A stretch of 64,000 nt of DNA from assembly GCA_030765065.1 (NCBI GenBank), contig CM060990.1, positions 411,937,198-412,001,197 on the forward strand, in the 5' to 3' direction. Of this stretch, positions 8,876 to 34,610 are shown piece after piece (within the stretch, counting starts at the first letter, position 1; each line of letters starts with the position of its first letter). The DNA comes from Deroplatys truncata. Its lineage: Eukaryota; Arthropoda; Insecta; Mantodea; Mantidae. The notes beneath the pieces are model-generated. The model made no database searches. It saw only the letters and a program-made list of their open reading frames with translations, and had not been told where the DNA came from. Both the position numbers and the translations under genes were made by a program.

Positions 8876-8879
8876 TATA

Positions 8880-10505: not shown

Positions 10506-10892
10506 TCAGCAGCAGCAATTTATTTAGTGCTAAGTCTATTACATAATGGAGTCTATGGGAAATGGCCTGGACCACTTATGCCATTGCCATCCAGTGATTA
10601 CAGTTTATTTTACAGTTTTCTCTTCTCTGTATACTTTTCAGTTACCTCCTATTTACAGTAATGAGATTATCAAATTAAGTTTTGTCGAAGACCATTTCCA
10701 TTTCATCCATATTCCATGTATAATTCCGATTTCTAGTATGGCGAAGGCTATATACTGCAGCAGCAATGCTAAAGAATTTTAAAGATACAAAATGCCCCTA
10801 AGGCTAAAACTAAACTACAAGATTCCTTTAGACCTCAAACTTTTTATTCCTCTCCAGTTGCTATTAAGAAAGAAAAGTTTAAAGGATCTCCT

Positions 10893-11110
10893 GGATACTA
10901 ACATGGTAACTGAGGGTGTTACAACACAGACTCGTGAATGGAAAGTCTGTAGTTCAAATTCCACCATGGAACCATCCTCCCTAACCAAGTTTTTTTCTTC
11001 TTCTAGATTTTCCTCAGTCCTTATGACTGACAAATGCTGGGGAGTACCCTAACTAAACATAGGCCTGGTACATTTCCTTCCCAAATCTCTTTTCCCATTA
11101 TCATTTCATT
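10893..11110 (+). mobile_element. tRNA-derived SINE, family B, plus copy
   Basis: A tRNA-like head (10902-10968) has an acceptor-like pairing catggt/accatg and a B-box-like agttcaaattcc (10951-10962). The body reads gattttcctcagtcc, caaatgctgggg, agtaccctaa, ggcctgg and atttccttccca. This body matches the minus copy at 46270-46500 and a tail seen in many arthropod SINEs. The A box is degraded, so the copy is old. Confidence 0.65.
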
Positions 11111-12560
11111 TTATGTATCATCAGTGTAAAAAAAATTCTCCTACATCTTTCCAATATGGGGACTACATGAACAATATAGCACTTCTAAAAAGCAATTAAT
11201 TTGCAGATATAACAGCTGACTCTGGTGATAATATAGGAGCATTCATTTTCTCAACATAGGTAGGTATTTTGTACTACTGTTTCAGTGATATCTGTGCAAG
11301 TAACTGCAGTTATATTTTTCCACAGTATTAGATTTAGTTCTTGTTGTGTGAAAAGTCATATGGCATGGCTGCCATTTTAAAGGATCTTATCTGGATTTTG
11401 AGGTGCTGAATGGGGTTCACAGATTCTAGTGCATTTTTTTGCTTGCATACTTACACAGAGAGCATGAGACACATTATTGCCTGCACTTACTTGGTTGACT
11501 AACTGTACCTCCTAGAGAAAGTTGTTAGTTTCTCACATTGTAATGCAGGCAAGTATCTGTATGCATCTGCTAAGGGGCAAGATGTGCCATGGGATATACT
11601 GGGAAGCTAATGCAGTGGCTTTTACATCTTAAGTATAAAGAATTAAAGGAGACAGACCTTAAAGACGGGGCTTCCAAGAAAATTGCTATCCAATCACAAG
11701 ACTCACACTCCTCCCTCCCATGCAACACCTTGCAATGTTGTACAATTAGAATTAATACATGCCTGTAGTCGATGCGATGCAGTTACATGAATTTCTTCAT
11801 TTGCACTCAATGATTAATCCTATTTGAATATAGTAAAAATCACCATGACAAAGAGCATTATTAGTTTCCAAACATGGCTGTGAAATCCTTTGTAATTATT
11901 TCATGTATCTTCTGAATTACAAAGAAATGACTCTGAGATCCCAATGGATCAAAATCTCATCACAGAATTTGTAGAACACCGACAGAGGGACAACCAGTAG
12001 GCCATGATCATCAGGTGCACACCATCCAGTTCTATTCAGATGATGAGGAAGACATTTCTCTAAAATAGTTCGGGGTAAATCCTAATTCAGTGAAATGTGT
12101 ATATGTGCAACCATATATAATGCTTTTATGGCTGTGAAAGGCTCATATTTTTATCTCTACCTGCAGTCAAGCTAGACCAGTATGCAGTTATAAAGAGCCT
12201 TTTTCTTCTCTCCTACAAACAGCATCCCTTTTTTGTTATTAGGAAAATAAAACAGGACCTCAAACCAGCACGTAACTAAAGAACACTTTTCTTTCCTTCT
12301 CAAAACCAGTATCTGCTGTTTATCATTAGGACCATGCAGTTAAATTGGTTTCTGTAGAAATCATGTTGCTATCTCACCTGTCTACTCCTTCAGTCTTGCT
12401 AGAAGTGTGTTGTGTATGGTAACCTTACAAAATACTGTGTGGTTTTGCATAAATTTTCATTTAAAATAATGGACCTTAATCAACCCAGCATGCATGATGA
12501 GACTGACAAGTTCATGAGTGAGGCGTAGTGCAGCAAATTTAGAGATGGCCAAAGACACTT
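11111..12560. other. No recognisable feature
   Basis: AT-rich sequence with no open frame of note, no end repeats and no motif I can name. Compatible with intron or intergenic DNA. Confidence 0.5.
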
Positions 12561-12850
12561 TCATTATGAAGGTGGTCTGGGATGAAAGCAATTGTCCACC
12601 CTCCCTATAGCCCAGATCTAGTGCCATTGTTTCCTGCAGGTACAAAAATGGTTGAGACAGCATTTCCACTCCAATGTGTTTAAGGGCACTGTGCAGACCT
12701 GGCTCAAGAGACAGGAGGCAACTGTTTTTGCAAAGGGTGTTAGAAATCTCGTGCACAGGTGTGTAAATGCATGAACCTTCATGGTGATTATGTTGAAAAG
12801 CAGCTTATAGGTGTAGCTAACTTTTTCAATAAAACCATTCTGTAAGCATT
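12560..12850 (+). pseudogene. mariner transposase C-terminal fragment
   Basis: In shifting frames the plus strand gives HPPYSPDLVP (the third-Asp block YSPDLAP of mariner), then KWLRQHFHSNVFKGTVQTWL, and finally KCMNLHGDYVEK, the usual end of mariner transposases. At least two frame changes are present. The N-terminal two thirds and the end repeats are not seen. An antisense 99-codon open frame over it is a shadow. Confidence 0.7.
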
Positions 12851-13047
12851 AGTTTTCATTTCATGTCTATTGGATGATGGAAAGAAAATAGTCGTCATAT
12901 AACTGGAATTATTGTGTCCATACAGACCTCCCTGTAATATGTTAGCTTTAAGCAGCAATTTCTTAAAAGATCAGAAACTAGAAAGTTTGCTGGATCATAA
13001 ACATAACAGCCCCTACTTGGAACACAAAGGAAATGACAGTCGTTTCT

Positions 13048-13048
<1 letters not shown>

Positions 13049-13078
<30 letters not shown>
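13049..13078 (+). repeat. A30 homopolymer
   Basis: Thirty consecutive A, followed by a purine-rich stretch (gaataaagaaaaaaagg). It could be the tail of an unrecognised retroposed sequence, but I cannot identify a body upstream. Confidence 0.9.
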
Positions 13079-13079
<1 letters not shown>

Positions 13080-13080
<1 letters not shown>

Positions 13081-14900
13081 ATAAAGAAAAAAAGGTCTAA
13101 TCGAACAATAAGGAATACTCCCTCAAAGTGAATATGGTACATGCATGTTGGGAACAAAACTTCTGTAGTGAACCTGTACATGACAGTGACAATAGACTAG
13201 TAGATTATAATAGAAGAAAATAGAATGTATATTCAAATAAATTAAGTAAATTGCATGGGAAGCTTTCTCTCAAACGCCAATATGTGCAGAAACAAAAAAG
13301 CTTACCTGTATGAAAGTAAGAAAGAGAGAAAGCAAATCAGGAGGAAGAAAAATGTCATGTGATTACACATGAGCCTAAAATTAAGCAGGACTGGCAGATA
13401 TTACCAATATGGTAGATAAGAGATTTTACAACAGAACACACTTGAGCAGATATACTTCAAGTAGTGAGAGTAGCCAACAATATTAAGTAATTGAGACAGT
13501 CACACTAACCATTTGCATACCTCATGATAAATATAATGTTGTGACCTAAACGGTGGCAAGCGTAGGGCAGCTTATGGGGAATAAAACATATTTTAAACTG
13601 TTGGTGAGTGTCTTCAATTGTAGCTAGTAATAAACCCAGAATGCTCACATCCTGAGCAACCAGAAAGACTCTCTCCTGCTAGCATCAACAATGACACACC
13701 CCGACAAAAACCCAGGGCTCCACCTCCCACCTTCCTAAACCTCTGTCTGTAATCAAAAATCCATCTCTGTCACCCAAATTCTGAGGTGTTGAGCATAGTG
13801 TGCTAAACAAATACGGGCAGCCTCAGCTTCTTAACTGAGACTGATCACTAAACATTTTCTTAATCACTATGCTTCAACTACTCCTAAGCCGTTTTTCTCC
13901 TCCATTCAAAAGTTCCTCTGCATTCCATCAAAATATGGATCCCATCTTCATTATCTCCACAGACTGCACACATGTCCTGTGTAATATTACCTCAAAAACC
14001 ACTTATAAGTTTCTACACGCCTAATCTAAACTATACAATGCCCTTGCACTCTTTTTTATTTCATACGTCTAAATACTTTTCTCTATTTAATTCTGTCTTA
14101 ATAATTTTAAAAAAGCACAAAAGAACTATCATTCATTCCAAAGTATGATATATCTCTATATACTCCCTTCTGGAATGGACATATTTCCAAAATCCCCTCA
14201 CCATTCCCATGTCTTTGAAACCAAATATCACTTAAACCATTTCTCTCTAGTTGAGCCTTAAAGGAGGACTGAACTAAAAATTAACATGTCTATTTTATTT
14301 AATTTTCTGCAAGATCTTGTATTGTGCAAAATAATCGTGAAAACCAGAACAATGTACAACTTACCGTTCAGGATCTGCAGGGTATTTTCCACACTGGCAG
14401 TCAGTAGAGCAGTCAGAAGAATGTTAAGGGGGGGGGGGTTATGTATATGGATCCATTTTTTATACAATTTGTATCAGTTTAAATGATAAATATGAATTAA
14501 ACCTGAGTTGAAATCAGTAATTATTGAGTCAATTATAACACTACATCACTTACTTGTTTTTATAATGAATATATTTTTAGGGGCTAAAACCTCCAACCTC
14601 CAAAACTCCTGGCTATGCCTCTGTTGGCAGCGCACTGTGGTGCCATCATACAGCTAGCAGGTATCTCCTGCCAGAGCAGCTGATCAGTCATAGTGAAATG
14701 TGTAGTCACTGTAGTGCTTAAGAATATCCATGCTTTAAAGTTTCACTTCTTTGAACTCGTCTCATTATTTACGTGTTGTATTTCCCCCTCCCCCATTTTA
14801 ATTCAAACCTAGAGAAGTACCAGTCTTCCATTTCCTGTTTATTAAGCTTAATTCTCTGAAGAGAGCTAATATTACAATAACTCCTGATACTACATGCTTA
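13080..14900. other. Mostly featureless; possible hAT end near 14600
   Basis: No gene is seen. At 14585-14622 the text aactcctggctatgcctctg is the inverse of a common hAT-like terminus (cagaggcatagccagga), but no partner end is found. A run of 11 G lies near 14428-14438. Confidence 0.4.
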
Positions 14901-14949
14901 TATTGAAACTTGTATTCATTTAGTTCACTCACTATTTGTGATACAAGAT

Positions 14950-16796
14950 TTTGTCCCCACTCATAAGCTTTTTTTCTCATATTTCTTTTTATACACATAG
15001 TCTCCAGCCAATTTAGAATACTCCATAGAACTGCCCACTACTTTATTCCCTTGGTGAAAATTATTATCTAGAACAGCTATCATTGATCTGACATACATAA
15101 TTAGAAAGGAAAAATATGTTCATTTTGGGACATACTTCAAGCACTCATTGTGGTAAGATTCAAGGCTTCCTGATGATGAAAATGGTTGAAATGCGTAATA
15201 TCGCTTAAAAATCTTGTATTCTTTACAACACTGCACAAATCATTGTATTCTGTGGAATTCTTAAATAGTCAGTTTCTGTTTTTCACTTTTCCTTCACTCA
15301 ACATATCATAAGTACATGAATGAAATTTCTCAAAACCTATTCAATTATGAACATTAATAATGTGATTTAGAATTGAAGTGAGCTTTTCCTTTAGGAGTAC
15401 ACTGTCACTTTCATAAGTAGCAAATGCACACCACAAGCGATTATAAATAGAATGCTTTCATTCATGAAGAACCAACGATTTTGGAATCTTATTAAACATT
15501 ATCATAAGGGATTTAGCAAGATGTGACAATCAAATTCATGGTGTGTATGCTGAAATTTCTTTTTCATTAAAGCTATATCTAATACCTGTGTGTGCGTCTG
15601 TCTGTCAGGAACAATTTTATTGGCAGGTTTTTGTTCATAGAAGTCAGTATATTTTTGCAAGCAGCTTTCTCAATATCACCACTTACAGTTCCTCTCTGTA
15701 CAATTATTAAGTCCTATATTTTATTTGTTGCCAAATTCATTATAGAATATGTCACATATTTAGCAGAAAATCCTGGGGAGTTGTACTGTCCATTCCCACA
15801 AAAACATAAATTTGAATCATTCATGACAATTGCAAAATCACTTTCTTTTTCTTTTAACCAGGCTTTGTGTAGACAAGAGAACACAAATTTTTTAACAAGT
15901 CTATAAAAATATTATTCAGAAAAAAATAATAGTTTTATTGCCTTTGAGAATGCCAAGCAACAGTCAAATCTCATTCCGCAAAGATACATGCCTGAAACTA
16001 TGCACACATTACTTTCATACTTCCACTTTCACCTCCAGAGCACCACTCGTAAGTGTGCCCATTCACACAATGGCTTATAATTTGCATTAATGTCCCTCTT
16101 GTGTTAGATTTTCTTTCAGTGACAGGTCCACCACATGTGTGACAAATACTGAATAGCACAAGGAGAGCATTTACACATACAAACACAAAAGAATATTTTT
16201 TGGACATATCTAAATCATCATCTCCATCCTCAGTGAATTTCCTCAAATATTTGTTTGGGTTATAATCTTCATCATTTATAGCTGAAGATTTGCCTTCCTT
16301 ATTAGTCAAACTTGGTACACATTAGCACTATTATAGCACTAAACATTTCAGTTTCCAACTCGCACTGTATTGCAGCATCGATTTTCAATCCACATGTAAA
16401 GATTCAAAAACTAGTGTAGCTTCACTTTCTTGCTGAGAATTGCTTACTGAATTATTGACTAGGAGTAGCACTTGCTTTCTTTTAAAATAATTTTGACTTC
16501 TTTTTCTGGGAGGTTTTTCTTCCAGTCCTCCTAAAAATTTCGAAGGCACCATATTATCTTTCAGTCTAGATCTCAGTGAACTCATTAAAATCACATTCTT
16601 TGACAAGAATTCTACATACTTTAGCATTTTTGATTGGCATAAGGTTTTTGCATTTCAAAGCAGCAACCAATTTGTCGTAAAAATGTCGATTCTTAACCCC
16701 ATCAGGGAATGAGTAATAATCAATATTTCTGATTATGTCGGAACTATATGCACAACCATAAACACTGCATGCAGGCATTCCTGATCTTACTCTCAC
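14950..16796 (-). pseudogene. THAP-domain transposase remnant (Kolobok-like)
   Basis: Minus-strand gene in pieces. A THAP zinc finger opens it: MPACSVYGCAYSS, YYSFPDG, KVCRILVKECDF (16566-16796), continuing in another frame as SLRSRLKDNMVPSKFL (near 16530-16570). The CxxH half is damaged (CRIL where CxxH is expected). Next come KYSFVFVCVNALLVLF, CHTCGGPVTE and CVNGHTYEW (15998-16210). The DDE core follows: NGQYNSPGFSAKYVTYSIMN with LFLTDRH (15590-15800), where the first catalytic D may be N. The end reads AVLDNNFHQGNKV near 15010-15080. THAP plus DSPG and TDRH blocks recall Kolobok transposases; P-element relatives also carry THAP domains. There are several stops and frameshifts. Ends were not found. 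Confidence 0.65.
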
Positions 16797-16912
16797 AGAA
16801 CACTAGGAAACGAAAACCATCCTACAATCACAAAATAACAACAGAAATTAAGTGCAATGCAAGGCTAACTAATGCAAATGACAATAAGTAGCATTACATG
16901 ATCCTAGCCTCA

Positions 16913-16920
16913 TGACGTCA
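16913..16920. promoter_or_regulatory. CRE palindrome tgacgtca
   Basis: A perfect tgacgtca lies about 120 bases upstream of the THAP transposase start on the minus strand. It could be a CREB/ATF site in the old transposon promoter; a chance match is also possible. Confidence 0.3.
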
Positions 16921-16972
16921 CTGCAAGCTGAGCAGCATTAAACATAAAAGTGCTTCCAGAATGAAAGCAAGA

Positions 16973-17046
16973 GTAGTAATTTATTTGGTTGACCTTTCTC
17001 AGTTCTCATCACTCAGCTGAGAAAGATCGACCAAGTAAATTACTAC
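16973..17046. repeat. Short foldback (30-base arms)
   Basis: Arm 16973-17002 (gtagtaatttatttggttga...) pairs with 17017-17046 (...ccaagtaaattactac), about 90 percent, around a 14-base loop. It sits directly left of the hAT element at 17064. It may be a tiny MITE or the fused ends of a deleted element. Confidence 0.75.
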
Positions 17047-17063
17047 AATGAATGGGTCATCAC

Positions 17064-19365
17064 TAGGGCTAGGATTTTTATGATAGAGCATATATTTTTT
17101 GGTAGGACTGACATGCTCCTTAAATACATATAAATGCTTCTTATGAAACAGCGAAATGAATTAACCTAATTTGTTAAGTCATATTTTTGCATATATGGCC
17201 ATTTCTCTCTGATAGAGCATACTTTAGTAAGTAAATGGTCATATTCGTCATATTTTCACTCTTTCAAGAAGAAAAGAACTTTCTCATGCAATTTATTTAT
17301 TCCGTGTTACATTTCCCAGAATTCCGCACCTCATTTTGTTTCCTGGAAAATGGGAAGTATCTACCTTCCATCCCTGTTTCCTTGAATTCACAATACGGAC
17401 TTCACCCTTATGCATCATGAGTTTGGGTAAGCTATTGTTACTCTATGAGCAGGTAGCACTCTATGAACAGGTAGCTGATTAAGTCATTCTGGACCCTGGA
17501 CTGCAGACAAGTGTCTAATTCACTCATTGTGTTATTCAGTCTTATTGTAGTCATAAGCGTGTGCAGTACATTTCAGAAAAAATGCCTAAAGTGAAGCAAA
17601 ATGTTCAAGTAAGACTAAACAAGTTTGTGTCTCAATATGGTGAGAAAGTATTTTCAAGTGATGGTATAATACTCTATTGTAAACTGTGCGACGTAAGAGT
17701 AACTGCTGAGAAGTCATTTAATGTTCAGCAGTATGTGGCAACAGATAAACACAACCGTGGAGTACAATGGATTGAAAATGAAAAAACCTACAGCAAATGC
17801 TCCTAGGGGAATCCCGCCAGTCTTATTCACCATTCTGCAAAGAACTTTATACAGCTTTCCTTTGTGCTGATATTCCCTTAAGTAAACTAAACCATCCAAA
17901 ATTTCGTGAATTCTTAGAAAAATACACAGGCAAAACTCTGCCTGATTCTTCCACATTAAGAAAGAACTTTGTCAGCGGAAGCTACGAATAAACAATACAA
18001 CAAATCAGACAACAGCTCGTAAATAAAAAAATTTGGGTATCAATTGATGAAACTACAGACTCTATGGGAAGATATATTGCAAATGTCATTGTGGAAACTT
18101 TGAAAGATGGTCCAGGTGAAAAGTTTCTAATAAACTATGAACATTTAGAAAAAGTAAATTTTTCCACTATTTTTAAGTTGTTCGACAGATCTATGGGTGC
18201 CATATAGCCCGAAGGTGTTAAGCATGACAATGTACTTCTCTTCGTAACGGATGCTGCACCTTATATGGTGAAAGCTGCCGATTCTCTAAAAGCATTGTAC
18301 AGTAAAATGGTGCATGTGACTTGTTTAGCTCACGTCTTGCACCGAGTTGCAGAGGAGATTCGTAGTAAATTCAGTGACGTTGACAAATTTATTGGATGTG
18401 TCAAAAAGATATTTTTGAAAGCCCCTTCACATGTTGTAGCATTTAAGTTGTTAACTCCAGACATTCCCTTGCCACCATCTCCCATTTGACAAGATGGGGG
18501 TCCTGGGTTGATGCCTGCAACTATTACTGCCAGAACTTCAACATCGTGAAAAGCGTCATTGATTCATTCGATAGCAGTGAAGCTACTTCAATTGGACTAG
18601 CTCAAGAATTAATGTCTAATGGTGAAGTTTCAGGCAAACTTTCATACATAAAATCAAATTTTGGATTTATTCCAGCTGTCGTAACTGCTTTGGAGGAATC
18701 AGAAGTGCCACTGGTGAAGCAGATAGAACAAGTGAAAAAAGTTGTGAATAAATTAGAGGGTGTTTGTGGTAAAGTGGGAAAAGAAGTGTCAAAGAAAATG
18801 GAAAAGGTGTTCGAAAAATACGAAGGGTATCACACACTGTGTTCCATTTCAATGATTTTATTGGGTGAAAAGTTCTCTCTTAATCATTCACATATAGATT
18901 CAAATTATATTGTTCATTTTAAATATGCTCCTCTTGTGTCAGCTGAAGTAGAAAGGAGCGTTTTGAAGTACAAGGCTTTGTTGGCTGACAATAGGAAATC
19001 TTTTTCATTTGAAAATTTGCACAAGGTCTTCATTGTGAATTGCAACTCAGAGCGTATATGAAGTAGAATGAGGATGTAAAAAGCACATAGGTTAACTATG
19101 TTCCTATAATGTTAATAAAAATCATACTGGAATGTCAAATTGCAGAGTTTAACTTACTTCTCATGTGTATTTTATTCTCAAATAAATAGTTCATTATCAA
19201 AACTGACTTACTAATTTATTTTACAATAGAAATTTTCTCTCATTTTAATATTGCTAGGTCATATTTATTATGTTATTGTGCATATTTTGGCAAATGTTTG
19301 GTCATAACAGCATATTTTTTGGTGCATATTATGGTGATTTTTAGGTCATAAATATCCTAGCCCTA
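17064..19365 (+). mobile_element. hAT element (family 1, copy B) with TIRs and 8-bp TSD
   Basis: Left end tagggctaggatttttatga is mirrored at the right end (tcataaatatcctagcccta, to 19365). Flanks are gtcatcac (17056-17063) and gtcatcgc (19366-19373), a 7/8 match. Its 2.3 kb carries a single transposase gene on the plus strand. The end sequence resembles that of copy A (cagggttaggatttttaggt). Confidence 0.9.
17561..19061 (+). pseudogene. hAT transposase (CGGBP1-like family), copy B
   Basis: Nearly full-length but broken. The N-terminal BED-type finger has MPKVKQNVQVRLNKFVSQY, CKLCDV and a distal H in TDKHNRG. After a frame change: IPLSKLNHPKFREFLEKYTG and LPDSSTLRKNF. Catalytic segments: VSIDETTDSMGRYIANVIV (first D) and [19 protein letters not shown] (second D), then [17 protein letters not shown], and RWGSWVDACNYYCQNF after another frame change near 18480. 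The C-terminal dimerisation domain is intact: YAPLVSAEVERSVLKYKALL and FSFENLHKVFIVNC. In-frame stops lie at 17989-17991 and 18205-18207, plus two frame changes. A few changes separate it from a whole gene, so it is younger than copy A. Confidence 0.85.
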
Positions 19366-19379
19366 GTCATCGCTATTAC

Positions 19380-20225
19380 GAATGCTTCTTATAATTATTT
19401 ATTTATGGAAACAAGAGGACGCAGAGCAACAAGGTTTTCAACAGTTGCTTGGAATTGTTTATATTTCATTTTTAGAAGTCTTTAAAAATTTAGTTCAATC
19501 CTCCTTTAACTTTTCTCAGCCAAATGACACTGCTCAAATGTTTTTTTTTTTTTTTGGTACCTAAGGTAACATTTTAAATTATTCTCTTCTGACATTACCA
19601 ATCCTTCCTGACATTAATCCTTCCATCACCCAGCCCTTTCATAGTTCTTGCCCTTGCCTAGTTCTAATAAAGACCCAACTATAGCTGTGTATACTGAAGA
19701 ACACCTAAAATAAGCCTACAAAATGACCTTAATATAAAAATTTATAGTGAAATAAACATTCCCATTCAAATATGACATGCCTAATTCCTTTGCAGCTGCA
19801 CCAGAATGACATAACTTTTGGTGAAAAAGTATAATTTAATTCACCTTTGGTTTTACTTTCCAGTGAAGTTTCAAAATTGTAATTCTTTTTTTTTTTTTTT
19901 TTTTTTTTTTTTTGACATCTCCAGGTGAAAAATGCATCAATTTTAATGGACATATATTAATAAATAGTATTTACTACAAAAGCTTCCCAAGCATGTACTA
20001 TTTAAATATTCATAAATAAAATACAAATTTCTAGAGCCAGCAAATAATTGCATAATCTGGAATACCATGTTTCATCCATACTGTAACATCCAAAACAATG
20101 GGAATGAAAAAGTTAATCAATTGCTTGCTTTCTAATGTGTTTTGCATGAAGGTGACTTGTGAAGAATATCTTCAATTTCTGAACTTCTGAAGCTGTACGT
20201 ATTTAAACTTCATCTAAATATACGA
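19380..20225. other. Intronic-looking, with a T28 run at 19886-19913
   Basis: No gene or element is recognised. A run of 28 T at 19886-19913 may be the reversed poly(A) tail of a minus-strand retroposed sequence. Confidence 0.5.
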
Positions 20226-20227
20226 GG

Positions 20228-21240
20228 TGGAGGTGAGGTGAGGTGAGGTGAAGTCGTGGTGGCAGCTGCGGGGGTGGCAATGGCAGATGTAGTAGAAGGA
20301 CTTTTATTGCGAAAAGTTTAGTCCACACTTGTAAAATACAACAATCACATGGGCCTCATGGCTGTACAATCTTTTCTTGTCCCTAGAACCTTACAAGAGT
20401 ATAATACTAAATATATATTTTTTGTAACTATATACTAACATAATACAGGAGAAAAAAAAGAAAAGAAAGAAAAATAATAAGCACGAATTACAATTGCAAA
20501 CATAGCATCAAATATAGTGCTCTGACCCTTAAGAACTCGCTCTTTTCCCCCCCTTTTCCATTCTGCAGGGCAAATAACCTCCTTTACCGAATCTTAGATA
20601 AAAAAAGACTCCATTTTATGACACCCTGTATCCAACATTATGTCCAAGCAGGCTAACAGTCTTCTATTGGACTCCAGAAACTTTGGTGGTAAATGTTGTT
20701 TTCTTGGTATTTTTGTTTCTCTGCACTCAGCCAGAATATGATTCCATGTTTCCCCTTCACCACAGAGTGGATATATTCTCACTTCAGTGTCATCAATTAA
20801 TCTGTTGCCTTTTCAGGTACCCAATCAGCCACATTAAACCGCTTCTTTGTTCTCTTGTAGTCGCCTAAATAGGCCTCCCTCCCCCAACCTCATGCTATTT
20901 AACACTGCAAGTTAACTGAAATTTTAGCCGACTATTGTGATTGTAAATTTTGTCTGTCAATATCATGCAGTCATCTCTGAACTATCTTCCACCTGCTATG
21001 TTCCATGTAGCCAAATGTACCCCATTCCAATTCCTTTTAAGAAGCTGCGTAATTTTGTTGCCCGACTCTTCCCGTACTTGCTCCCTGAAACACACAGCAT
21101 ATAGAAGTGCCTGATCCCCCTGTACTATGCGTAACCAGTATTTAACTGCCCTTACTTTTAGATGCATGATTTCATTGTATAAGCTGAATTCTTTAATACA
21201 ATGACTGAATCTAACATTGCAGATTCACTATTGCATGAAG
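20228..21240 (-). mobile_element. LINE 3' fragment with CCHC-like C-terminus
   Basis: Minus-strand translation gives LKVRAVKYWLRIVQGDQALL and ATWNIAGGR (20982-21167) and then CGEGETWNHILAECRETK (20594-20782). The C-x2-C-x-H-x4-C spacing near the C-terminus is seen in several insect LINE clades. The rest up to about 20290 reads as a 3' untranslated region. At the end lies a (ggtga)n run (20228-20252). The 5' part, including most of the RT domain, is missing. Confidence 0.65.
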
Positions 21241-21895
21241 TTTGAGTGTCAGATTCATTCATTGTTATACTCTTCAGTATGAAAATGTTAATATACTTAA
21301 CAGAAATCACTATGGTGAGTTTAAACGAATGCCAATTAGTTTTTATTACATTAGTTTAATTATCAGGTGATGTAAAAAGTCTCTTGCAATAGAGTTTTAG
21401 TCCGATTTTCTTGATGACCTGCATAAATACTCCTAAGATGTGTATATGCAGAGTTATTCTGCATTTTAATTTCCTGGTAATACTTATTTCTCAAAAATGT
21501 CTTTTTTCTGTTTTATCAATTTGTTAAAGAGTTCCAGTCTAACCAAATGTATAAAATTTAATATGAACACAACTGTGCATAAAACCCAGGATCCCTTAAA
21601 ATCCTTAGTCTTTTACTGTATCCTTCTTGTCTGCACAAAAATTAGTACACAAGGAGCTTTTTATACAACAAATATTCAAGAATAATAAACTCAGAAAAAA
21701 CTATATTAAATTCCTTTTAATCTGTTGAACACCTCTTAAAAACCATGGGATTTTATACAATTAAAAAAAAAATTCATTAGCAGAAAAAGCTAAAACTGCT
21801 ACTATTGGTAACAATTTCTTAAATTTCAGTTATAAGTCACTTTATGTAATTAAAGTTATGAAGTAAAGAATATTTTACGAGATACAAAATTGTAC
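21241..21895. other. Intron downstream of the angiomotin-like exon
   Basis: AT-rich, without repeats I can name. It begins, in the minus direction, with the splice donor at 21895. Confidence 0.4.
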
Positions 21896-22043
21896 CTTTT
21901 GGGATTTTGCAACGTTTTGCAAACAGGTTTCAAGTTCAGCCTTCAAAGAACTGTTTTCTTGCATTAAAATTTCTACCATCTCTGCTGGAGGCCAAATTTC
22001 TCTTCCAGGAGAGTCAGTATCTTCACTTCCATGAGTTTTAGGT
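21896..22043 (-). CDS. AMOT: Internal exon of a probable angiomotin-family gene
   Basis: The minus strand reads a strong acceptor (ttatttactctttcag) ending at 22044, then 148 bases, then a donor (aaaag|gtacaa) at 21895. One leading base plus 49 open codons gives a phase-2 start and a phase-0 end. The translation starts PKTHGSEDTDSPGREIWPP and continues AEMVEILMQENSSLKAELET, then CLQNVAKSQK. The second half fits the start of the angiomotin coiled coil (vertebrate pattern MVEIL..EN..L..ELE.C...VA..QK), a heptad-rich scaffold region that binds polarity and Hippo-pathway proteins. No repeat-family motif is present. The rest of the gene is not identified here; its introns must hold the surrounding transposons. 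Another coiled-coil gene is possible. Confidence 0.68.
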
Positions 22044-22382
22044 CTGAAAGAGTAAATAAATAGATAATTACTTCATTAATTTTTATGTCATAAGTTACAA
22101 ACTATGTTACAACTAGAGCTCGGTGCAATAGGCACTAAAAAAATTATAACAGGCAGGCAAATAGGCACTATCAGTAATAATAAGCATTGAAGTGGGCACA
22201 TTTATTCATTTACGACTTAAAGACACATTCTGTTCATGACAGTATAGATATATTAAATGCACATATCCCATATATTAAATTCCTCTATTTTCTTAAAGAA
22301 ATGTAAACTGTAAATATTATTTTCTTAAATCTGAACTCTTCAGTTACTATGTATTTTGTATGGCAAGCTCTATTATCAGCTT

Positions 22383-22426
22383 TCTCTCTCTCTCTCGCAT
22401 GCATGCACGCACGCACACACACACAG
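22383..22426. repeat. Compound microsatellite (TC)n (GCAT/GCAC)n (CA)n
   Basis: Runs of tc, then gcatgcatgcacgcacgc, then acacacacac. Located in the presumed intron, 340 bases upstream of the angiomotin-like exon. Confidence 0.9.
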
Positions 22427-22439
22427 CGGTGGTTAGCAT

Positions 22440-22716
22440 GGGCCTCGTAGAAAAATCACCTACAGTGGCTGCTGCTTAAGTTGTGTGTTTTTGTGTTTTC
22501 TGAGCCGGTCAATTTCAATTTCGATGGCCGGTTTCCATTTGGGACTGAACTATAGCCCAGCTTCCTGGTTCAGCATGCCCCTCCCGGAGATGACCAGTGC
22601 CTCCTTGACCCTGCGCTCCCAGTAACTGCCACATTTGGCCACGATGGTTGTGTCGCGGAAGTTGGCTCTATGGTCCATTTCAAGCAGTGTTCTGCCAGTC
22701 CAGACTTCTAAGGCCA
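22440..22716 (-). pseudogene. Penelope-like element C-terminal fragment
   Basis: Minus-strand frame reads GRTLLEMDHRANFRDTTIVA, then KCGSYWERRVKEALVISGRG and FSPKWKPAIEIEIDRLR, with one in-frame stop. This is the region just after the GIY-YIG core in Penelope-like proteins (HR.NF..T.I......YW.R..KEA.EI). It is more GC-rich than its surroundings and belongs to a different subfamily from the element at 1-1850. Confidence 0.7.
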
Positions 22717-22975
22717 TCCATTTATTCTTAAAGTTATATATTCACCTAAAGCCTTAATTTGTGATTGGTCTTCAAAAAATTTCCTACATGCTATTTGTTT
22801 ATTAATTTTAAACCATTTCTGTACAAGTTTTCCATTGTTCTGTCCCTGCATAATCAAATAGTGATGTGCTTAACAAACTCTTCAATTCATATTTGACAAG
22901 ATCCCTTATCTAAATTCTTTTCAATGAAGTACAGAAACAAACAAAACAAATACATAAATTAATAAAATTCATGTA

Positions 22976-24213
22976 CAAGTTTATTCAAAAGTCATGTGCA
23001 AAAGTAAAGTTATTTTATTTGTCACTGGAATGACACACACAAACAAAAAAGGTGTGAAATAATAGAACATGTTTGTAAGTTTATACTGTGAACAATGTAT
23101 GAAAGGGCTGCTGACAGTAGTAGTAGTAGTTGTTTATGTGTTGACTGTTAGAATGGCATACTCAAAACAAGAGTGTGTATTTTGTGTGATGGAAATTGCA
23201 TGAACAGGGACTGGTAACAGTGAGAATATGCTTTCAAACAAGATTCAACAAGTGCCCACTACATAGGAACTGCATTTCACATTGGGTACAGAAGTTGAAG
23301 CCTGAGAGTCATACAGATCACCCATAAACATTGACGGAAGATAGTGGATGGGAACCCAAGCCACATTTCAAAGAAGTCCAGGAAGTTATAACCCATGCTA
23401 GTTGAAAACTCAAATGCCACAACCTCCTGTATAGCATATTCTCTGGCAATGTTAGTCCTTCAAACCATACCAACTGCAGCTCATTCAGGCACCGACACCA
23501 GCAGACAAGCCTAAATGCCTCACCTTCTGCATGAAATGCAAAACCTATTAGAGGAGGAATGATTCACCCACAGGCTAGTGTTAAGCCATGAGGCAATGCT
23601 CCATCTAAGCAGAAAGGTGAATCATCATTATGTTAGGATCTGGGGTACAGAAAACCTTATGTATGGGCCCTCCCTTTTTGACGAGTGTACTGTCACTGCT
23701 AAATCTGCCTGCAGTTGTTAAGAGAATGGCTTATGCCTCAAATGATGATAGATCTGGATGTAATCTTCTAACAGGATGGTGCTCCTCCCCACTGTCATCA
23801 TTATGTTTGCAGGTACCTGAATACCCCATACCAGTACATTGGATGTACTGGCCAAACTAGAGGTGAGATTTGGCAAATGCTGCTCTGGCCTCCATGATCA
23901 TCAGAGCTTTTTTATTTTTATTTTTTGATATGTGAAGGATGCTGTTTATATTCCCCATTACCATAGAACATGCATGATTTGAAGCAACGCGTCTCTGATA
24001 CAGTGGTGCGAATGATGGAAGATAATATGTTAAGACGTGTCTGGTAGGAATGAATTATCATTTAAACATCTGCTTTGTTACCCAGGGTGCTCATATTAAC
24101 ATTTGCAAACTTATAAATGTATTCTATTATTTTATACCACTTTTGTTTGTGTATGTCATTCTAGTAACAAATAAAGCTCCACTTTTGCACCATGACTTTT
24201 GAATAATCTTGTG
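22976..24213 (+). mobile_element. DUF4817/mariner-type element with ~100-bp TIRs
   Basis: Bases 22976-23080 (caagtttattcaaaagtcat...) are mirrored at 24117-24213 (...gacttttgaataatcttg), an imperfect TIR of about 100 bases. The 1.24-kb length fits mariner relatives. The plus-strand interior holds QDGAPPHCHHYVCRYLNT (second catalytic D block, near 23775-23830) and, after frame shifts, YVKDAVYIPP and RVSDTVVRMMEDNMLRRVW (near 23930-24040). These are hallmarks of the DUF4817-associated transposases common in insects. The N-terminal half is unrecognisable and the gene is dead. The end sequence resembles the MITE at 29411-29916. Confidence 0.75.
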
Positions 24214-24219
24214 TATGAA

Positions 24220-27210
24220 ATTGGTTTTCAACAGAATTCAATGTCTTCTAAATATTCTAATACAAAAAAATTAGCAGTTTAGAGGGATCTTTCACATAAG
24301 GCTTTTTGTAATAAGGTGAACATGTGTGAAAAATAACAGGAATCCATTGGTATTTCATCCTAGAATTTTTCTGAACCCTTCTTTTTTCAAAAACACAAAG
24401 GGTTTAAGGTTACTTCCAACATCACTAGCTATCTTTTTATCTTTCAATCTTTTCTATCTTACTTCTTAATTCCTTCCAGCATCTCTTATTTATGCTCTCT
24501 GAATCTCAAATTGTATGAATTAGGATGCTCATGGTATTAATATGTCATGTAAATAATCTATAATTACTTCACCCTACCAAACATTCCAGGTATTCTATCT
24601 TGGATAGGTTGTTGAATTGGTCAAGGTGGACATATGGCCTTCCTTGTCCTTTATTTATCATGTTCACCTCTGTGATCAGTTTGACACCAGCATACCTTTA
24701 AATTTAAAATTTTCATTTTACGTTCTGTTATTATGTACAGACAGGAGAAGTTACATGCAGTAGTAATTGGAGCAAATTGGTACAGAGTGGCTGAAAATGA
24801 GGAATTATAAGGAAAAGAACCAAGAAGTATTATTAAAAGGAGTGCCTCATGCATATACAGATAAGAATACAGCATCCAGTTCTGTAAAATGAACAAAGGG
24901 TGGTTGCGTAAAAGTGCAAATCTGATTTTGAGGAGTGAATCTTTTAAAAGTAGTGCAGATATTACACACAGATTACACAGTATGCTACATCATATACTTG
25001 CCACCAGCTTGACAATGCAAGTGTTTTCAGATGCAGAAATGAAGTCATGAGCTATGAAGTATGTGAATGAGGAAAACATTTTTCAGCAAATCCAACTTGT
25101 TATACCTATATTTCAAGTCAACCATTTTGGAGAAGCTGTCCACTTATAACATGATAGTTAATGCAATTGATTTAAATACAGTTTATATAAATTTATTGAT
25201 GACAATAGTTTCTTATCATTATTGTGGAAATTATATAGTAAAAAGACTAATTACCTACAATCAATTTTCAGAAGATTTTTGCATAATTTCCGATCTACCT
25301 GCATAATTTCATCATTTATTTTAAAAAGCTTATACACTTCAATTAAGGCCAGTTTCTTCTTCCCTTTAAAGTGCTTTAAAGTTTGTGACAATATCTTATA
25401 CCTAATACTTCAACTGAAATCAAACTGTTAAATTATGCAGCAGGTGTTTTAAAAATGCCCCAATCAACTCTTCACTTAGCACAGTGTATGAAATAATATG
25501 GATATATCATAACTGCTCTACACATGTCCCAAAATTCCCCATACTGGTCAAATATGATTTCAAGTTTTCCGCTTGCATTACAAACCTCTTTAGTGTTCTA
25601 TTATTTACAAGGGCACTGCTTAAAAGAAAAGAGTATACCTTCTATACTTTCAGTATATTTAAATAATCTCCTTGCCTATATAACATGCACAATGTAATAT
25701 TGAAACATACATACAAACTGCCACAATCTCACATCAGTGCTCTATCTTATGCTATCAATATGTGAGCTACTAGGCTATCAGCTACTGTGGTCACTAGCCT
25801 ATCTGAGGACATTACAGCTTTACTCCAGACAAATGGAGAGCTCCAGGTAATGTTTTAAGCACCACTTGCTTACCTGATTTATGTCACTAAAGTAACCCTA
25901 AAACTTAGCTCCTTAAAAGATCCCGAAAGGCATCATGTTCATCTCTGTGTATGCAAATGGAAGTTCTAGAGATATCAAAAGATTGATGCAATTTATATAC
26001 CTAATGATAGGCAAAATAATGGTAGATGTTGAAGATTTTGACAGCAAACTGCGTGATTCAGAGTAAAATATGTTAAGCAAAACTAAAATAAATATAAAGA
26101 TAATACTTATTATGTATTTCAATATTTAAACACTCTATACACTTTTAAGAAAACAGAATTACTTCTTCCGCCCCCCCAAGATATCTGAATGAACAATGCG
26201 AATAAATACCTGAAACTATAGTCCATAAGGAAATGAATATACCACATAAGAATAGGTTTTTTAGCTTTAACCATACAACAAATATTTATTTACTTCTTTA
26301 CAGAATATCAGCATTTAACATTCATGAAAAACAGCTTGTTAATTTAATTCTTCATGGATTGTACACTGTATTGTAGAAGCTGCATCCTCAGCTTTGGTAT
26401 TTCATGGCAATGCAATGAAATAGGATTGAATACATATTCAGTGTATTGTTTGTCCTTAATTTCAAATTGAAAATTTTAATATAAGCCTCTGAATAATGCA
26501 GAAATGATTCCTTCTGGTGGTATAAATAATGTTACCAATAAATAGCACTTCTGCCTATGTTGTCCTCCCTAAACACAACAGAATTTTTCAGAGGTATGAG
26601 CAATTTCTACACATAGGCTGCAGTTGAAGCTGCCATGGCACAGAAACAATCAAGTGCTATAATTCATATATAGTTTTAATAGCAAAATAAGCAGAGGAAA
26701 AGTAAGCCAGTACAAGTGAACCAATATTATAAGTGCATGGAGAAATACTTAACGTATAGATGAACTCTTAAATTGCACATAGTATTAAACCTGCAAGGCC
26801 TAACATACTGCACCTGTTCCATCAGACATATAAATAATCAGGAACTATAACCTAAATATAGTAAGATTAGAACAAGCATTTTGGAGCTTCTAGTCAGACA
26901 TCTATGTAAGTTGATGGAATAGTTCCATCCACGACGTGAAGGGGTAAACAGCTTAAATATTTCAGCGCTGCCTCATACTGATTAGTTCTCAAGTATTGTA
27001 TTCTCAAGTTCCCACTATTGTGTTGTTAATTAGAAACCTCAACCCCAATTAAGTTTTGGCATATAGTGCAAAAAGCAATATACTTTATTCAAACAGGAAT
27101 GTCATTTGGGATATATGACTGCCCTCTTCTGCAAACACATGGCAATAAAGCAATGGCTCACTGTTTTATGGAAACAAAATGAATATTTCTATAAAAAGTA
27201 AACAAAAAAC
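24220..27210. other. Intron-like, no recognisable feature
   Basis: Three kilobases of AT-rich sequence. Short open frames here have no recognised domains, codon structure or splice context that I trust. Confidence 0.45.
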
Positions 27211-27216
27211 ATAATA

Positions 27217-29219
27217 CTGTATTTACTCAGCTATAGAACCTCCTCTTTTCCCCTATTTTTACTTCCAAAATTGGGGGAGGGTCGTATAGGTGCCAACTTC
27301 ATAAAATCAATTAGTTTGGAGAGGAGTAATTAAAAAATAGCTATTTTTCAATGCTATTTTGAGATTTTTAATTGAAATAAACAAAATTACATATGTAAAC
27401 AACAATTCATTGCTGTAATAGTAAGTTTGTTAACATCCCACGCAGTGATAACCTCTGCAAAAATGCATAATGTGGTGGATGGGCATGGCCTGTAGAACAA
27501 GGAACACATGCAGATTGAAACTTGAATAACAGTTGGCTACATATAATATGAAAATCCTTATTTTTAATACCGGTATAGGTAATTATGTTCATGCTTCACA
27601 AAAATATTTAAGCAAGGGATGAATAGCAATACGGTACCTATTGCGTGGAATCACAGGAATCCTCATCACTGTCTTCACTGCCGTCATCATTGCTAGAGTA
27701 TGTGTCTTCATTTCCTTCACGTTCTTTCCATAGAAAATCATCTTCAAAGCCATCTAATCCACATGTTATTCCAGTCTTTTTCAAAACTCTTTTCAACAAT
27801 TTCAGCAGTGATCAGTCCCCAAGCATGCATAATCCATTCACAAATGCATTGTATTGATGGTCGCTAGATTTTCCTGGTTTTTGTTGTCTTGTGCACATTG
27901 TCCACCTGTTAGTGTAATAAGTCTCAAATGGCCCTTATAAGGCTTGTTTATGAAAAGTCTAATGGCTGCAAAATGGATGTAAGTCCTCCTTGGATAATCG
28001 CTGGATACATTTTGGTTAAATTCAATCGAGTTTTAACACCAACTAAGTGACCGCGAAAGCTGTTGAGTACAAGCATAGACTTTTTTTATTAAGGAGAGTT
28101 CCTGGACATCATTCCCACACAGTTCTTAACCAGTCCTTCATCAGATCTGCATTCATCCACCCTTTCTCCTGTATAGAGATGTGACTTTCCTTCTGAAAGT
28201 CTTCTTTAGCCAGAGTTTTCCACTTGAAAACACAGTATGGCAGGAGTTTCCTGCCATCTGCAGTCATACATAGCATCACAGTAGAGCAGTAACTTCTCAG
28301 CTCCAGTAGTTTTCACTAAAACACTTGATGCTCCTGCTGTATTTATCGATGTGCTTGTTAGCAGGTCGAAAAAAAAAAAAACTGGTTTGGTCAGCGTTTT
28401 GAATTTGCGATAAAAGAAAGTTATGTTCTTGACGGAGACTTATCACGAAACAAGAAATTCTATGACTTTCTCTGTGTAGTCGGCTGGAAGCCATTGACAT
28501 AGTGAAGTTCTTCTGCTCAAACTCAAAGTGTTGTGATGCATAAATCATACTGCCCAGCCTCAGCTCACTTTAAATTCTGAACCCGAGATCTTTTGCAATC
28601 TCATGTGCCTTAAACTGCAGCATTTCATGTGTTACAGAGTGACCATTGTTTTTTGTTTAACAACCTACTCGAATACTTTTTTATTGACTTCTTAGTACTT
28701 TCCTTTCTGTATTCCATGAAAGGATTTATGATTTCTCTTAACTAGCATTAGCTGATCTTTCTGGTTGAGCCAATATCAAATCATTTTAGATTGTACGTTG
28801 AATTCACAAGATGCCACTCTTATGACATTTTTATTTGCAAATTTGACAGCATTTAATTTAGAAGAGGCTGTAAAACTCATCCTGAAATTCTTGGAACTCA
28901 TTCTTTTAAGTTTTCACACTCACAGTAAGCATCAAAGATAAAGATTGGATACGTAAAGAAAGTGCAAACTAAGCGCCTGCACGAGTGGGTGAGAACTAGG
29001 AAGGGGTTGGTTTTATCCTTCTTTTGTGATTGGTAGTAGCCTGAAAGACTCATTGTTACGAGTTTTAGCATGCTGTTTGCTTGTCACAGAAGCTAATAAG
29101 GCAACATTGTTAGATTTAGATTGACATAAGTAAGGAATTTCCTAGAATTTTTAATTTTGCCTATCAAACATTAAGGGGGGTACTATAGGCGATGGGGTCC
29201 TATAGCCAAATAAATACAG
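27217..29219 (-). mobile_element. pogo-type element with TA target site
   Basis: Left end ctgtatttactcagctatag (27217-) and right end, reversed, ctgtatttatttggctatag (to 29219) match, with ta on both sides (27215-27216 and 29220-29221). This is the usual pogo terminus in insects (ctgtatttactc...tata). Length 2003 bases; one transposase remnant on the minus strand. Confidence 0.85.
27640..28560 (-). pseudogene. pogo (Tigger-like) transposase remnant
   Basis: The minus strand shows ASQHFEFEQKNFTMSM (near 28500) and QIQNADQT, then, across an A-rich interruption near 28370, PANKHIDKYSRSIK, KTTGAEKLLLYCDAMYD, EGKSHLYTGERVDE, KKSMLVLNSFRGHLVGVKTR (second catalytic Asp changed to N in LNSFRGH; family LDSFRGH) and QGGLTSILQPLD, ending with CICEWIMHAW and EIVEKSFEKDW near 27780-27850. 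This is the DDE domain of pogo transposases. At least five stops or frame changes; the N-terminal DNA-binding domain is only partly visible. Confidence 0.75.
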
Positions 29220-29410
29220 TACATGCATGCATATGCAAATATTGGTTGAATATGCACTAACCTTTTAAATAATATGCATATATATGCAGTATAAAATTTC
29301 TCCAGTTGATTTCTCATATCATGAAACACATTTCTCTCTACCACACATATGTTTAACTTTCAACAAAACAAACACGCAAATAATTAAGAATCCACCCCTA
29401 TTAATCACAT

Positions 29411-29916
29411 ACACAGGATTATTCAAAAAGAAGGAACAGATTTTAAATATTCATTTTTAATGAACGACAATAGATAGTAACACATATGACACATCACTGA
29501 ATAGAGGAAGGTTCAAAGTTTTAAGTCCCACCTATTAGTTCCATTTAGTGCCTACAGTGGCGCCTGGTTTGTTTACAAGGAAATGGCGATGCCACAGGAA
29601 AAGTCGTTTTGTGCTGCAATATGCAAAGAGCAAATCCATTGTTTCACTGCAGCGTGCATTTTGTTGTAAGTTCAACAACGAGCCGCCTCGTGATAAAAAA
29701 TTTACAACTGACACAATAAATTCGTAGAAGATGGTTGCATATTCAAACGGAAAAGCATTGGTCATCTTGGCATAACAAATGGTGCTTATTTTGAACACAT
29801 TAAATAAAATTTTAAACTCTTCTCTATTCAGTGATGTATCACATGTGTCGCCATCTATTGTTGTTCATTAAAATAAATATTTAAGGTCTGCTCCTTTTTT
29901 CCGAATAACCCTGTGT
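29411..29916 (+). mobile_element. MITE derived from a DUF4817 element
   Basis: The two ends form a terminal inverted repeat of about 110 bases (left acacaggattattcaaaaag; right, reversed, acacagggttattcggaaaa). The 290-base interior retains a start at 29583 and, in a shifted frame, YAKSKSIVSLQRAFCCKFNN and EPPRDKKF, the helix-turn-helix DUF4817 domain, joined directly to GITNGAYFEHI-like C-terminal codons. The catalytic core is deleted. This is a clear example of a MITE formed by internal deletion. Confidence 0.8.
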
Positions 29917-30129
29917 TACTGAACATTAGGGTTCTAATTTAATACAAACATAAAACACTTTAAGTGAGATATCACTCTAATTTAAACCAGAGGAAGCAAG
30001 TGATTAGAATTTGAACTATTTTGTCAGCAGAGTAACAAGTTGTAGCTGGCAAGGCAGAAAGAGATGTGCTATTGTTGAGAGTTTTGAGGTGCTAGTTGAT
30101 GACAATTTCCTGTAGACCTAGTTGGATTA

Positions 30130-31060
30130 ATTCAATTCAATTTACTGGTTCTGTAGATCATATACATGATATAAGACATGTCAAAAATACATATACAGCA
30201 ATGTACAATACATAGGAAAATCCTCAAAATGTTTAGAAATTATGTGTTAAAACAATATTAGTTTATATAATTGCTATTAATTAAAATGTATTAAAACCCA
30301 GGCTTACTTGTGCAATGAGATGTTAACATTAATAAATCTCTACTCATCAGATTCTTTTGAATCTGTTTCTTTTATCAAAAGTGCAAAAACTCATCAAATA
30401 AATCATAACATTTATTGCATAAATATTATGTACGTGCTTTTTCAAAATTGAAGTATATTTTATGTTTTATTTCCAAAGATAGATTATAAAACTGGATACT
30501 TCTATAATAAAAACTATTCCCATATAAATCATAATTAGTATTAAAAAGTTTTTGATATATGTTCGTATTTCTACAAAGGTTTCAAACAAATATATACATG
30601 GTAATGGTAACATAATTAAAACTCTAAAATATGCCTTACAACAGTGGTGGGTAGATTAAACAAATTCTAATGATTTTTTTACTGTAATCTAAATATTTTT
30701 ATCATTTCACTGCTATTTCCCCATAAAGATATTCCATATGATACATGTGAATAAAATTTTGCAAAATACACAGCTCTTAATGTGTACCAACACATTATAG
30801 TGATTATAATGCTGATACTGAGGGTGACACATAGATATAGTCAATAATAAAACTGAATTTTGAATGGTATTGTAATTAATTGACTCATTTCAGCCATAAA
30901 TAATGTCTCTTTTCCACTAACAATTTATGACTCTGTCTGCTTAGAGCCATATTTTTACCACAAATATATCTATCATGTTTCAATTTAGATTTTTCAAAAT
31001 GTTGTTCAATTATCTTTTCATTTGGAGGGTCTAGCAGCAGTTCTTTTATTTTACTGAATG
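30130..31060 (-). mobile_element. Jockey-like LINE 3' fragment
   Basis: Minus strand: KFYSHVSYGISLWGNSSEM followed by IKIFRLQ (near 30680-30800) matches the C-terminal RT segment MTYGITFWGNS of the LINE at 55.9-58.6 kb. The element ends near 30130 with atctacagaaccagtaaatt, a typical insect LINE 3' end. Stops are frequent; old copy. Confidence 0.65.
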
Positions 31061-31082
31061 GGAATTTTTTCTGATGAACCTA

Positions 31083-32346
31083 CAAGGGTGGTTTGATAAG
31101 TTCTCAGAACGGAATAGAAAAAAAGTACTTATATCACTAAAACTTTTTTTATTTTTCAATGTAGTCTCCTTATAGATTAATGCACTTGGTGCAACGATGT
31201 TCCAGTGCCTTTATCCCATCTCAAAAATGAGATTCCTCAACTCCGACTATCAATTCTTCATTTGAAGTGAATCTTTGTCCACCAAGAAAAATTTTCAGTT
31301 GTGGGAAGAGATGGAAGTCTTACAGAGCCATATCAGGTGAATAAGGCAGATGTGGCAACAATTCATACCTTAGTTCGTGTAATTTTGCCATGGCGACGGC
31401 ACATGTGTGGGCGCGCATTGTCTTGATGGAAGATAACTTTCTTCCTTGCTAAATCTGGCCTTTTTTCGTGTATCTTTTGTTGCAATTTGTCCAGGAGGTT
31501 AGCATAGTATTCTCCAGTAATTGTTTGCCCAGTGGGGAGATAATCTACAAACAGAAACCCCTTCACATCCCAGAATACTGATGCCATGACCTTTCCAGCC
31601 AAATGAATTGTCTTTGCTTTCTTTGGTGGCGGGGAATCAGCATGTTTCCCTGCTTTGACTGTTGTTTTGTCTCTGGAGTACAGTAGTGGACCGAAGTTTC
31701 ATTTGTGGTGACAAACCGGCGCAAAAAATCTTGTTCGTTTCTCCTAAAATGGGCCAAACATTGTTCCGATATTTCCATTCTCATGCGTTTTTGATCCAGC
31801 GTCAAGAGTCGTGGCACCCATCTCGCAGATAATTTTTTCATCTTTAATTCTTCAGTTAAAATGTGATATATCCTTTCAGATGACATCTGGCAAGCATGAA
31901 CAATTTCACGCACTTTCAATCGGTGATCCTCCATGATCATTTTTTGCACTTTTGCAATGATTTCTGGAGTAGTGACACATATTGGCCGACCACTGCGCAG
32001 ATCATCATCTAAGCTCTCCCGACCAAATTTAAATTCATTTGTCCACTTGGCAACAGTTGAATATGAAGGAGCAGAGTCCCCCAATGTATTCTGGAAGTCA
32101 GCATGAATGTCCTTTGCTTTCATACCTTTCTTTATGAAGTTCTTAATCACTGCTCGAATCTGGATTTTTTCCATCTTTGCAAATCCCTACGCGGGAACAG
32201 AGGCACGTCACCACCACAGCTTTCTTCCAAGAGCACTGATGTGGCACGTGTTTACAGGCAACAGTCCAATGAATATCACGTGAACAACTCGTTGTGCTAG
32301 TGCTGACCCATCGTGGTGATTCTGAGAACTTTTCAAACCACCCTCG
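31083..32346 (-). mobile_element. mariner element with TIRs and TA duplication
   Basis: Left end caagggtggtttgataagtt and right end, reversed, cgagggtggtttgaaaagtt match over about 27 bases with few mismatches, flanked by ta at 31081-31082 and 32347-32348. At 1264 bases it has full mariner length. Confidence 0.92.
31150..32174 (-). pseudogene. mariner transposase, broken
   Basis: The start at 32174 (MEKIQIRAVIKNFIKKGMKA) opens a 203-codon frame with the HTH domain and the linker WVPRLLTLDQKRMR. The first catalytic block reads TNETSVHY where mariners have VDETW, so the first Asp is replaced by Asn. The frame then shifts; 31363-31602 holds VFWDVKGFLFVDYLPTG and the second Asp in FHQDNARPH. A last piece in another frame has HLFPQLKIFLGGQRFTSNEE and KCINL.GDYIEK. 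Family length is about 345 residues; here there are at least two frame changes and two stops. Confidence 0.88.
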
Positions 32347-32348
32347 TA

Positions 32349-32990
32349 GTATATCAGGCATTGAAAGAGCTGTTGGCTCGGATTCCTGAACAGTTTCCTC
32401 CAGATCATGGAGTTGTTAGCTGGCTGTTCAACTTCTTTCTAAAACTCTTATTTAATTTTTTTATTATCATTACTAATAGTTGATCTATCCAAACTTTTAT
32501 AATATTTTCAAATATTCATTGGGAAATTGAGATCACAATCATTTATTTCATTAATTACATGTATAAATAAACATGAAAACTGTAAATGTTATTCTCAATA
32601 TCATTTTTTGAAATAATATGGTCAGCCTGTTGTCACATATTAGCAACCTTTGGTATTTTATTTATTTGTTTATTTATTATTGTTAACCTTGAGCAGTGAA
32701 AGGTGGTTTCAAAGTATTCCTGTTGCAGTATTGCTCCCTTTCTTATTATTACATGGCCTTATGGGTTTTGCATATCAGTTTGATAGTTTTTATCAGCCAT
32801 TATCAGTTGCAGGAACTGAAATTAGTATATACGATTGAAAGTCACTGGAATGTCCTTCGTAATGCTGGTACAAAATAGGGATTCAGGTACAGGAAACTCT
32901 GGAATAAGGGATTTTTAAAGATGCATAAATAGAAATCATTGTTTTATTTGCATTATATATGCACAAAAAGGTACTTATATATTACTCACA
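32349..32990. other. No recognisable feature
   Basis: AT-rich sequence between two mariner elements. A run of tttattta repeats lies near 32650-32680. No gene is seen. Confidence 0.45.
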
Positions 32991-32994
32991 ATTT

Positions 32995-34205: not shown

Positions 34206-34329
34206 ATATAATGCATGAGGTGAATTTTAAACACATTATATGTAAATGCCACAGATTTCATTTAATGATAAGCTAAAGTTACCGTTTATCAGCTTTTTAA
34301 GTATTCCTGTGCACTACAGAATAAGCACT

Positions 34330-34610
34330 CATGGATGTATTTATTTAATTTTCATTTAAAAGATTTCAACGGAGTATTTTGTTTAATTGACTTTGGCAGT
34401 TTGTTGTACAGCATAATTCTTTTATACTTAAGGTTTCTTCATATAAACTTGTACACTGAAATATAACTGACAGTTTGTGCTTATTCCAGGTGTGGTATGA
34501 GAGTATAAGAGAATTGATTTGAAATTCATGTATCTTTGTCTTAGCGTGGAGTAATACCCCATATATGTACAATGATGAAAGGGGGTAAGATATCCATTTT
34601 TTTGGAATAG
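34330..34610 (-). pseudogene. LINE C-terminal fragment
   Basis: A 68-codon minus-strand frame (34366-34572) reads INSLILSYHTWNKHKLSVIF and SLYEETLSIKELCC, with .CQSQLNKIL. The order H.TRNK..L..p...TSLY..S....KLYN.LP is the usual end of Jockey/CR1-type LINE proteins. Short and degraded. Confidence 0.55.

What the first reader, a model, noticed from the sequence alone, without database searches (positions are those of the whole stretch)
21896..22043. Host exon of a probable angiomotin-family gene in a sea of transposons
A 148-base minus-strand exon with strong splice sites and 49 open codons, the second half matching the start of the AMOT coiled coil. Angiomotin is, as far as I recall, absent from Drosophila but retained in other arthropods, so its gene here would inform Hippo-pathway evolution. 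It also implies that the flanking transposon-rich DNA is intron, giving kilobases of intron on each side.
Basis: partly seen in the sequence, partly recalled or inferred. Interest (0 to 1): 0.7.

Follow-up and report, generated by a model that had tools for sequence, protein, structure and literature searches.

The report
Angiomotin exon in a large insect genome
This is a genuine exon of an insect angiomotin gene whose known pieces are spread over about 480,000 bases of transposon-rich DNA; the gene family is already known from other arthropods, so the find is real but ordinary.

Summary
Window 21896-22043 (minus) is a 148-base exon with an AG acceptor and a GT donor. It codes for 49 open residues, and the peptide's only match in the 4.29-Gb genome at E<=10 is itself.

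The interpretation also holds. Five further angiomotin (AMOT) exons lie downstream on the same strand, in the right order, 83 to 480 kb away. One carries Pfam Angiomotin_C, the only hit found in the genome. All five junctions keep phase. The six exons give 1,283 bases and 427 residues without a stop, and joined they match Angiomotin_C at E=4.4e-27. The five introns are 82.9, 124.0, 7.5, 138.8 and 126.0 kb, so the window DNA downstream of the exon is intron.

The N-terminal exons, which in vertebrates carry the YAP-binding L/PPxY motifs, were not found. Intron on the upstream side, and any link to Yorkie, are inferred.

The biology is not new: PMC5746249 says AMOT is present in arthropods, missing in the fruit fly, and probably lost in the dipteran lineage. 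It also suggests that the WW-binding motifs are conserved within vertebrates. This is a new member of a known kind; what is added is a partial gene model and the intron sizes.

The parts
21896..22043 (-). AMOT exon W (148 bases; phase 2 in, phase 0 out); codes for 20 residues of linker and the first 29 residues of the AMOT coiled coil
22044..22055 (-). splice acceptor context TTACTCTTTCAG
21885..21895 (-). splice donor context GTACAATTTTG (by eye weaker than the donors of the other five exons)
1..21895 (-). part of the 82,861-base intron between exon W and the next AMOT exon (C16:411876231-411875970); holds transposon remains
22044..64000 (-). presumed upstream intron (inferred from the acceptor only; no upstream AMOT exon recognised here or in the next 40 kb); holds transposon remains

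Best explanation
The stretch is an internal coding exon of an insect angiomotin (Motin) gene, the only such locus found in this genome and probably working. It lies on the minus strand of a 707-Mb contig; the six exons found span 480,435 bases. Most likely the product is a coiled-coil scaffold at cell junctions, and the coil that this exon begins serves dimerisation and partner binding. Whether it also restrains Yorkie (YAP) through N-terminal L/PPxY motifs is open; I put that at about one in two. Shown here: exon, family, order, phase, open frame and intron sizes of the model. Inferred from vertebrate Motins: function. Not shown: transcription, N-terminus, C-terminal tail. The confidence below is for the identity as an AMOT exon.
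For: PF12240 gives one hit in the genome at E<=0.001, 215 kb downstream on the same strand (80.5 bits). tblastn with a recalled human AMOT finds three more exons in order downstream, the nearest continuing exon W's frame. All five junctions keep phase: 427 residues, 0 stops, against 33 and 25 stops in the two other frames. The joined exons match Angiomotin_C at E=4.4e-27, profile 1-168 of 200. GC by codon position is 0.603/0.412/0.269. Exon W scores 35.0 bits against at most 24.3 for 300 shuffled queries. AMOT is reported in arthropods (PMC5746249, passages).
Against: No transcript evidence. Exon W alone matches no Pfam model and scored only E=0.15 with the first recalled query. The B-to-C join gives a slightly shorter linker than the insect sequence I recall, so a microexon could be missing; two pattern scans found none. 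The genome search scores only its best candidates, so further diverged copies are not excluded.
Confidence: 0.96

Rival explanations
1. A chance open stretch between splice-like dinucleotides that resembles a coiled coil only by composition.
For: The 49-mer has no Pfam match on its own, and an open frame of 49 codons is not rare in AT-rich DNA.
Against: Position, strand and phase fit five further AMOT exons; 35.0 bits against at most 24.3 for 300 shuffled queries.
Confidence: 0.01
2. An exon of a decayed AMOT gene (unprocessed pseudogene).
For: Very long introns, and no transcript data here.
Against: Six exons without a stop or frameshift and with AG/GT splice dinucleotides; no other Angiomotin_C hit found in the genome.
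Confidence: 0.02
3. An AMOT exon whose main product starts at an internal methionine in it (p80-like), so that part of the upstream DNA is 5' untranslated or promoter rather than intron between coding exons.
For: Exon W holds two in-frame methionines, and no upstream exon was recognised in 81.8 kb.
Against: The frame is open back to an acceptor, which suggests an upstream exon joined in phase 2.
Confidence: 0.12

Closest known systems
Angiomotin/Motin family (AMOT, AMOTL1, AMOTL2); Pfam PF12240 Angiomotin_C
   Same: Coiled coil followed by Angiomotin_C, in the same order; the coil start matches a recalled vertebrate sequence at 55% over 29 residues.
   Different: One locus found instead of the three vertebrate paralogues; long introns; an insertion of about 20 residues, rich in glycine, inside the Angiomotin_C exon compared with recalled human AMOT; N-terminus and C-terminal tail not recovered.
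Non-vertebrate AMOT orthologues, arthropods included (PMC5746249)
   Same: Recognised there by the conserved coiled coil together with the angiomotin domain, as here.
Drosophila Expanded
   Different: A FERM-domain protein: analogous in action. The same paper also names AMOT among 'two proposed orthologues of Ex'; no comparison was made here.

Membership tests
Angiomotin/Motin | Angiomotin_C domain (PF12240) | tested here: met
   E=4.4e-27, 95.4 bits, cut-off 23.5, on the joined exons; one place found in the genome
Angiomotin/Motin | Central coiled coil before Angiomotin_C, in order and in phase | tested here: met
   Exons W, B, C match recalled AMOT in order and keep phase; coiled-coil propensity itself was not computed
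Angiomotin/Motin | N-terminal L/PPxY motifs that bind YAP | tested here: inconclusive
   N-terminal exons not found: nothing at E<=10 for the recalled human N-terminus (the tool warns that such an empty answer shows nothing), one E=4.64 match on contig C14 for a made-up query, no convincing motif in 81.8 kb upstream. PMC5746249 suggests the motifs are conserved within vertebrates
Angiomotin/Motin | C-terminal PDZ-binding tail | not tested
   Exons after F were not sought by a dedicated search
Angiomotin/Motin | Junctional scaffold that restrains YAP/Yorkie | not testable with these tools
   Needs experiment

The most novel reading that the evidence does not exclude
This insect's AMOT is a p80-like Motin without Yorkie-binding motifs that works in junction polarity alone. 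The AMOT-YAP link would then be a later, vertebrate addition, and Diptera could lose the gene without touching Yorkie control.
Probability: 0.2. Interest if true: 0.45.

Novelty: new member of a known kind. Interest (0 to 1): 0.15.

Why it matters
It gives a partial, phase-checked gene model of a Hippo-pathway regulator that the fruit fly lacks, in a large-genome insect. The five introns measured add up to 479,152 bases around 1,283 bases of coding exon, a layout that gene finders could easily break (inference). It also shows that the transposon-rich DNA downstream of the exon is gene body and not intergenic.

Tried and rejected
Pfam with the 49-mer alone: 0 families at E<=10. PDB by sequence: for the 49-mer, 3 rows at E<=10, the top one an engineered repeat protein (4rzp, E=0.0011 for the whole sequence, no single stretch passing), rejected as coincidence; for the joined exons, 1 row at E<=1 (6trp, E=0.15, through the glycine-rich stretch). 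Missing piece between exons B and C: a motif scan of the minus strand and a pattern for a microexon ending in codons for Q-N-K gave nothing that I accepted; other microexons are not excluded. N-terminal exons: recalled human N-terminus against the own genome, nothing at E<=10; a made-up PPxY/LPTY query, 1 match at E=4.64 on contig C14, rejected; motif scans of the window's minus strand and of the 81.8 kb upstream of exon W gave only frames that I judged transposon-like or non-coding. Rfam on the window: 1 match, a tRNA.

Papers: 7 of 10 searches used. One search (angiomotin + Yorkie + Tribolium) returned 0 papers. In one search none of the 15 papers listed, of 44, holds the word angiomotin. 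PMC7035326 was searched for angiomotin and AMOT and holds one occurrence, in its reference list. PMC5746249, PMC6768662 and PMC5415356 were seen as passages only; all other papers as listings only.

Full report
What is there. Window 21896-22043 on the minus strand reads TTACTCTTTCAG | A CCT AAA ... CAA AAG | GTACAA. In the frame set by one leading base it gives PKTHGSEDTDSPGREIWPPAEMVEILMQENSSLKAELETCLQNVAKSQK; the two other frames hold stops. A genome-wide search with this peptide has one match at E<=10, the exon itself, so there is no sign that it is part of a repeat.

Where it lies. The window is C16:411937198-412001197 of a genome of 4,289,915,091 bases in 818 contigs; C16 is 707,006,351 bases long. 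One COX1 copy read with the invertebrate mitochondrial code gives 447 residues without a stop. That it looks like an insect's is my judgement from recall; no database comparison was made.

Is it AMOT? A search of the genome with Pfam PF12240 (Angiomotin_C) has one hit at E<=0.001, C16:411743961-411744323 on the minus strand, about 215 kb downstream of the window exon (1.6e-22 as a protein). With splice sites set by eye and joined by script, the exons are: W 411959240-411959093 (148 bases), B 411876231-411875970 (262), C 411751955-411751810 (146), D 411744341-411743953 (389), E 411605159-411605025 (135), F 411479008-411478806 (203). Phases in and out are 2/0, 0/1, 1/0, 0/2, 2/2 and 2/1, so all five junctions agree. 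The result is 427 residues with 0 stops, against 33 and 25 in the other two frames, and GC of 0.603/0.412/0.269 by codon position. The joined protein matches Angiomotin_C over profile positions 1-168 of 200 with 95.4 bits, more than the exon D match alone (positions 1-101, 80.5 bits), as expected if the joins are right.

How sure is exon W itself? It is short and alone matches no Pfam model. Against a recalled vertebrate motif for the start of the coil it scores 35.0 bits, 55% identity over 29 residues; the second-best place in 323 kb scores 20.4, and the best of 300 shuffled queries 24.3. A first, poorer recalled query gave only E=0.15. Because the motif was typed after the exon had been read, the junction evidence carries more weight: exon W ends in phase 0 with AKSQK, and exon B begins in phase 0 with LEQEISKVHSAHEELVQSSERRERLERAARARL, where the coil of recalled vertebrate AMOT goes on. 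By eye the donor GTACAA is weaker than those of the other exons (GTAAGT, GTAAGG, GTTAGT, GTAAGT, GTAAAG).

Intron sizes. W-B 82,861; B-C 124,014; C-D 7,468; D-E 138,793; E-F 126,016 bases, in all 479,152; the six exons span 480,435 bases, and the open ends show that the gene goes on beyond exon F and probably before W. Window 1-21895 is therefore intron. Of the 49 reading frames of 100 or more codons in the window, ten were sent to Pfam: five match families typical of transposons (GIY-YIG with reverse transcriptase; Mos1 HTH; zinc knuckle; RVT_1; a weak, below-cut-off endonuclease match), one matches DUF659, and four match nothing at E<=0.01. The DNA upstream of exon W is probably intron too, because the exon opens with an acceptor, but no AMOT exon was recognised in the 81,760 bases looked at, nor with two genome-wide queries. 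The tool itself warns that such an empty answer shows nothing.

How it most likely works. [quoted passage not shown] LPTY/PPxY motifs in the N-terminus bind the WW domain of YAP, and the p80 form lacks them (PMC5415356, passages). The exon studied here encodes the start of the coil. I infer, and have not shown, a junctional scaffold. [quoted passage not shown]

Is it new? What is added is a partial gene model in one more insect and the size of its introns.

Noticed in passing
Own genome, for example C12:187497786-187499126, C7:191494486-191495826, C16 near 193-195, 611, 638 and 672 Mb: 99 COX1 matches were reported (96 of 991 candidates scored), scattered over the genome, some in clusters of near-equal copies on C16; the copies on C12 and C638 have the same score, and one on C7 is nearly as good. 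These look like many nuclear copies of mitochondrial DNA, some recent and locally multiplied, or assembly joins.
   Followed up: no
window 48001-50000: A GC-rich island (52% against 30-40% in the other 2-kb bins) that coincides with minus-strand retroelement frames, one with a zinc knuckle.
   Followed up: partly
window 45551-45625 (+): An isolated tRNA-Ser (anticodon AGA), or a tRNA-derived repeat, in the presumed AMOT intron.
   Followed up: no
window 3398-4090 (-): A reading frame with DUF659, which I recall as typical of hAT-like transposons.
   Followed up: no
AMOT exon D, C16:411744341-411743953: A glycine-rich insertion of about 20 residues inside the Angiomotin_C exon compared with recalled human AMOT.
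   Followed up: no
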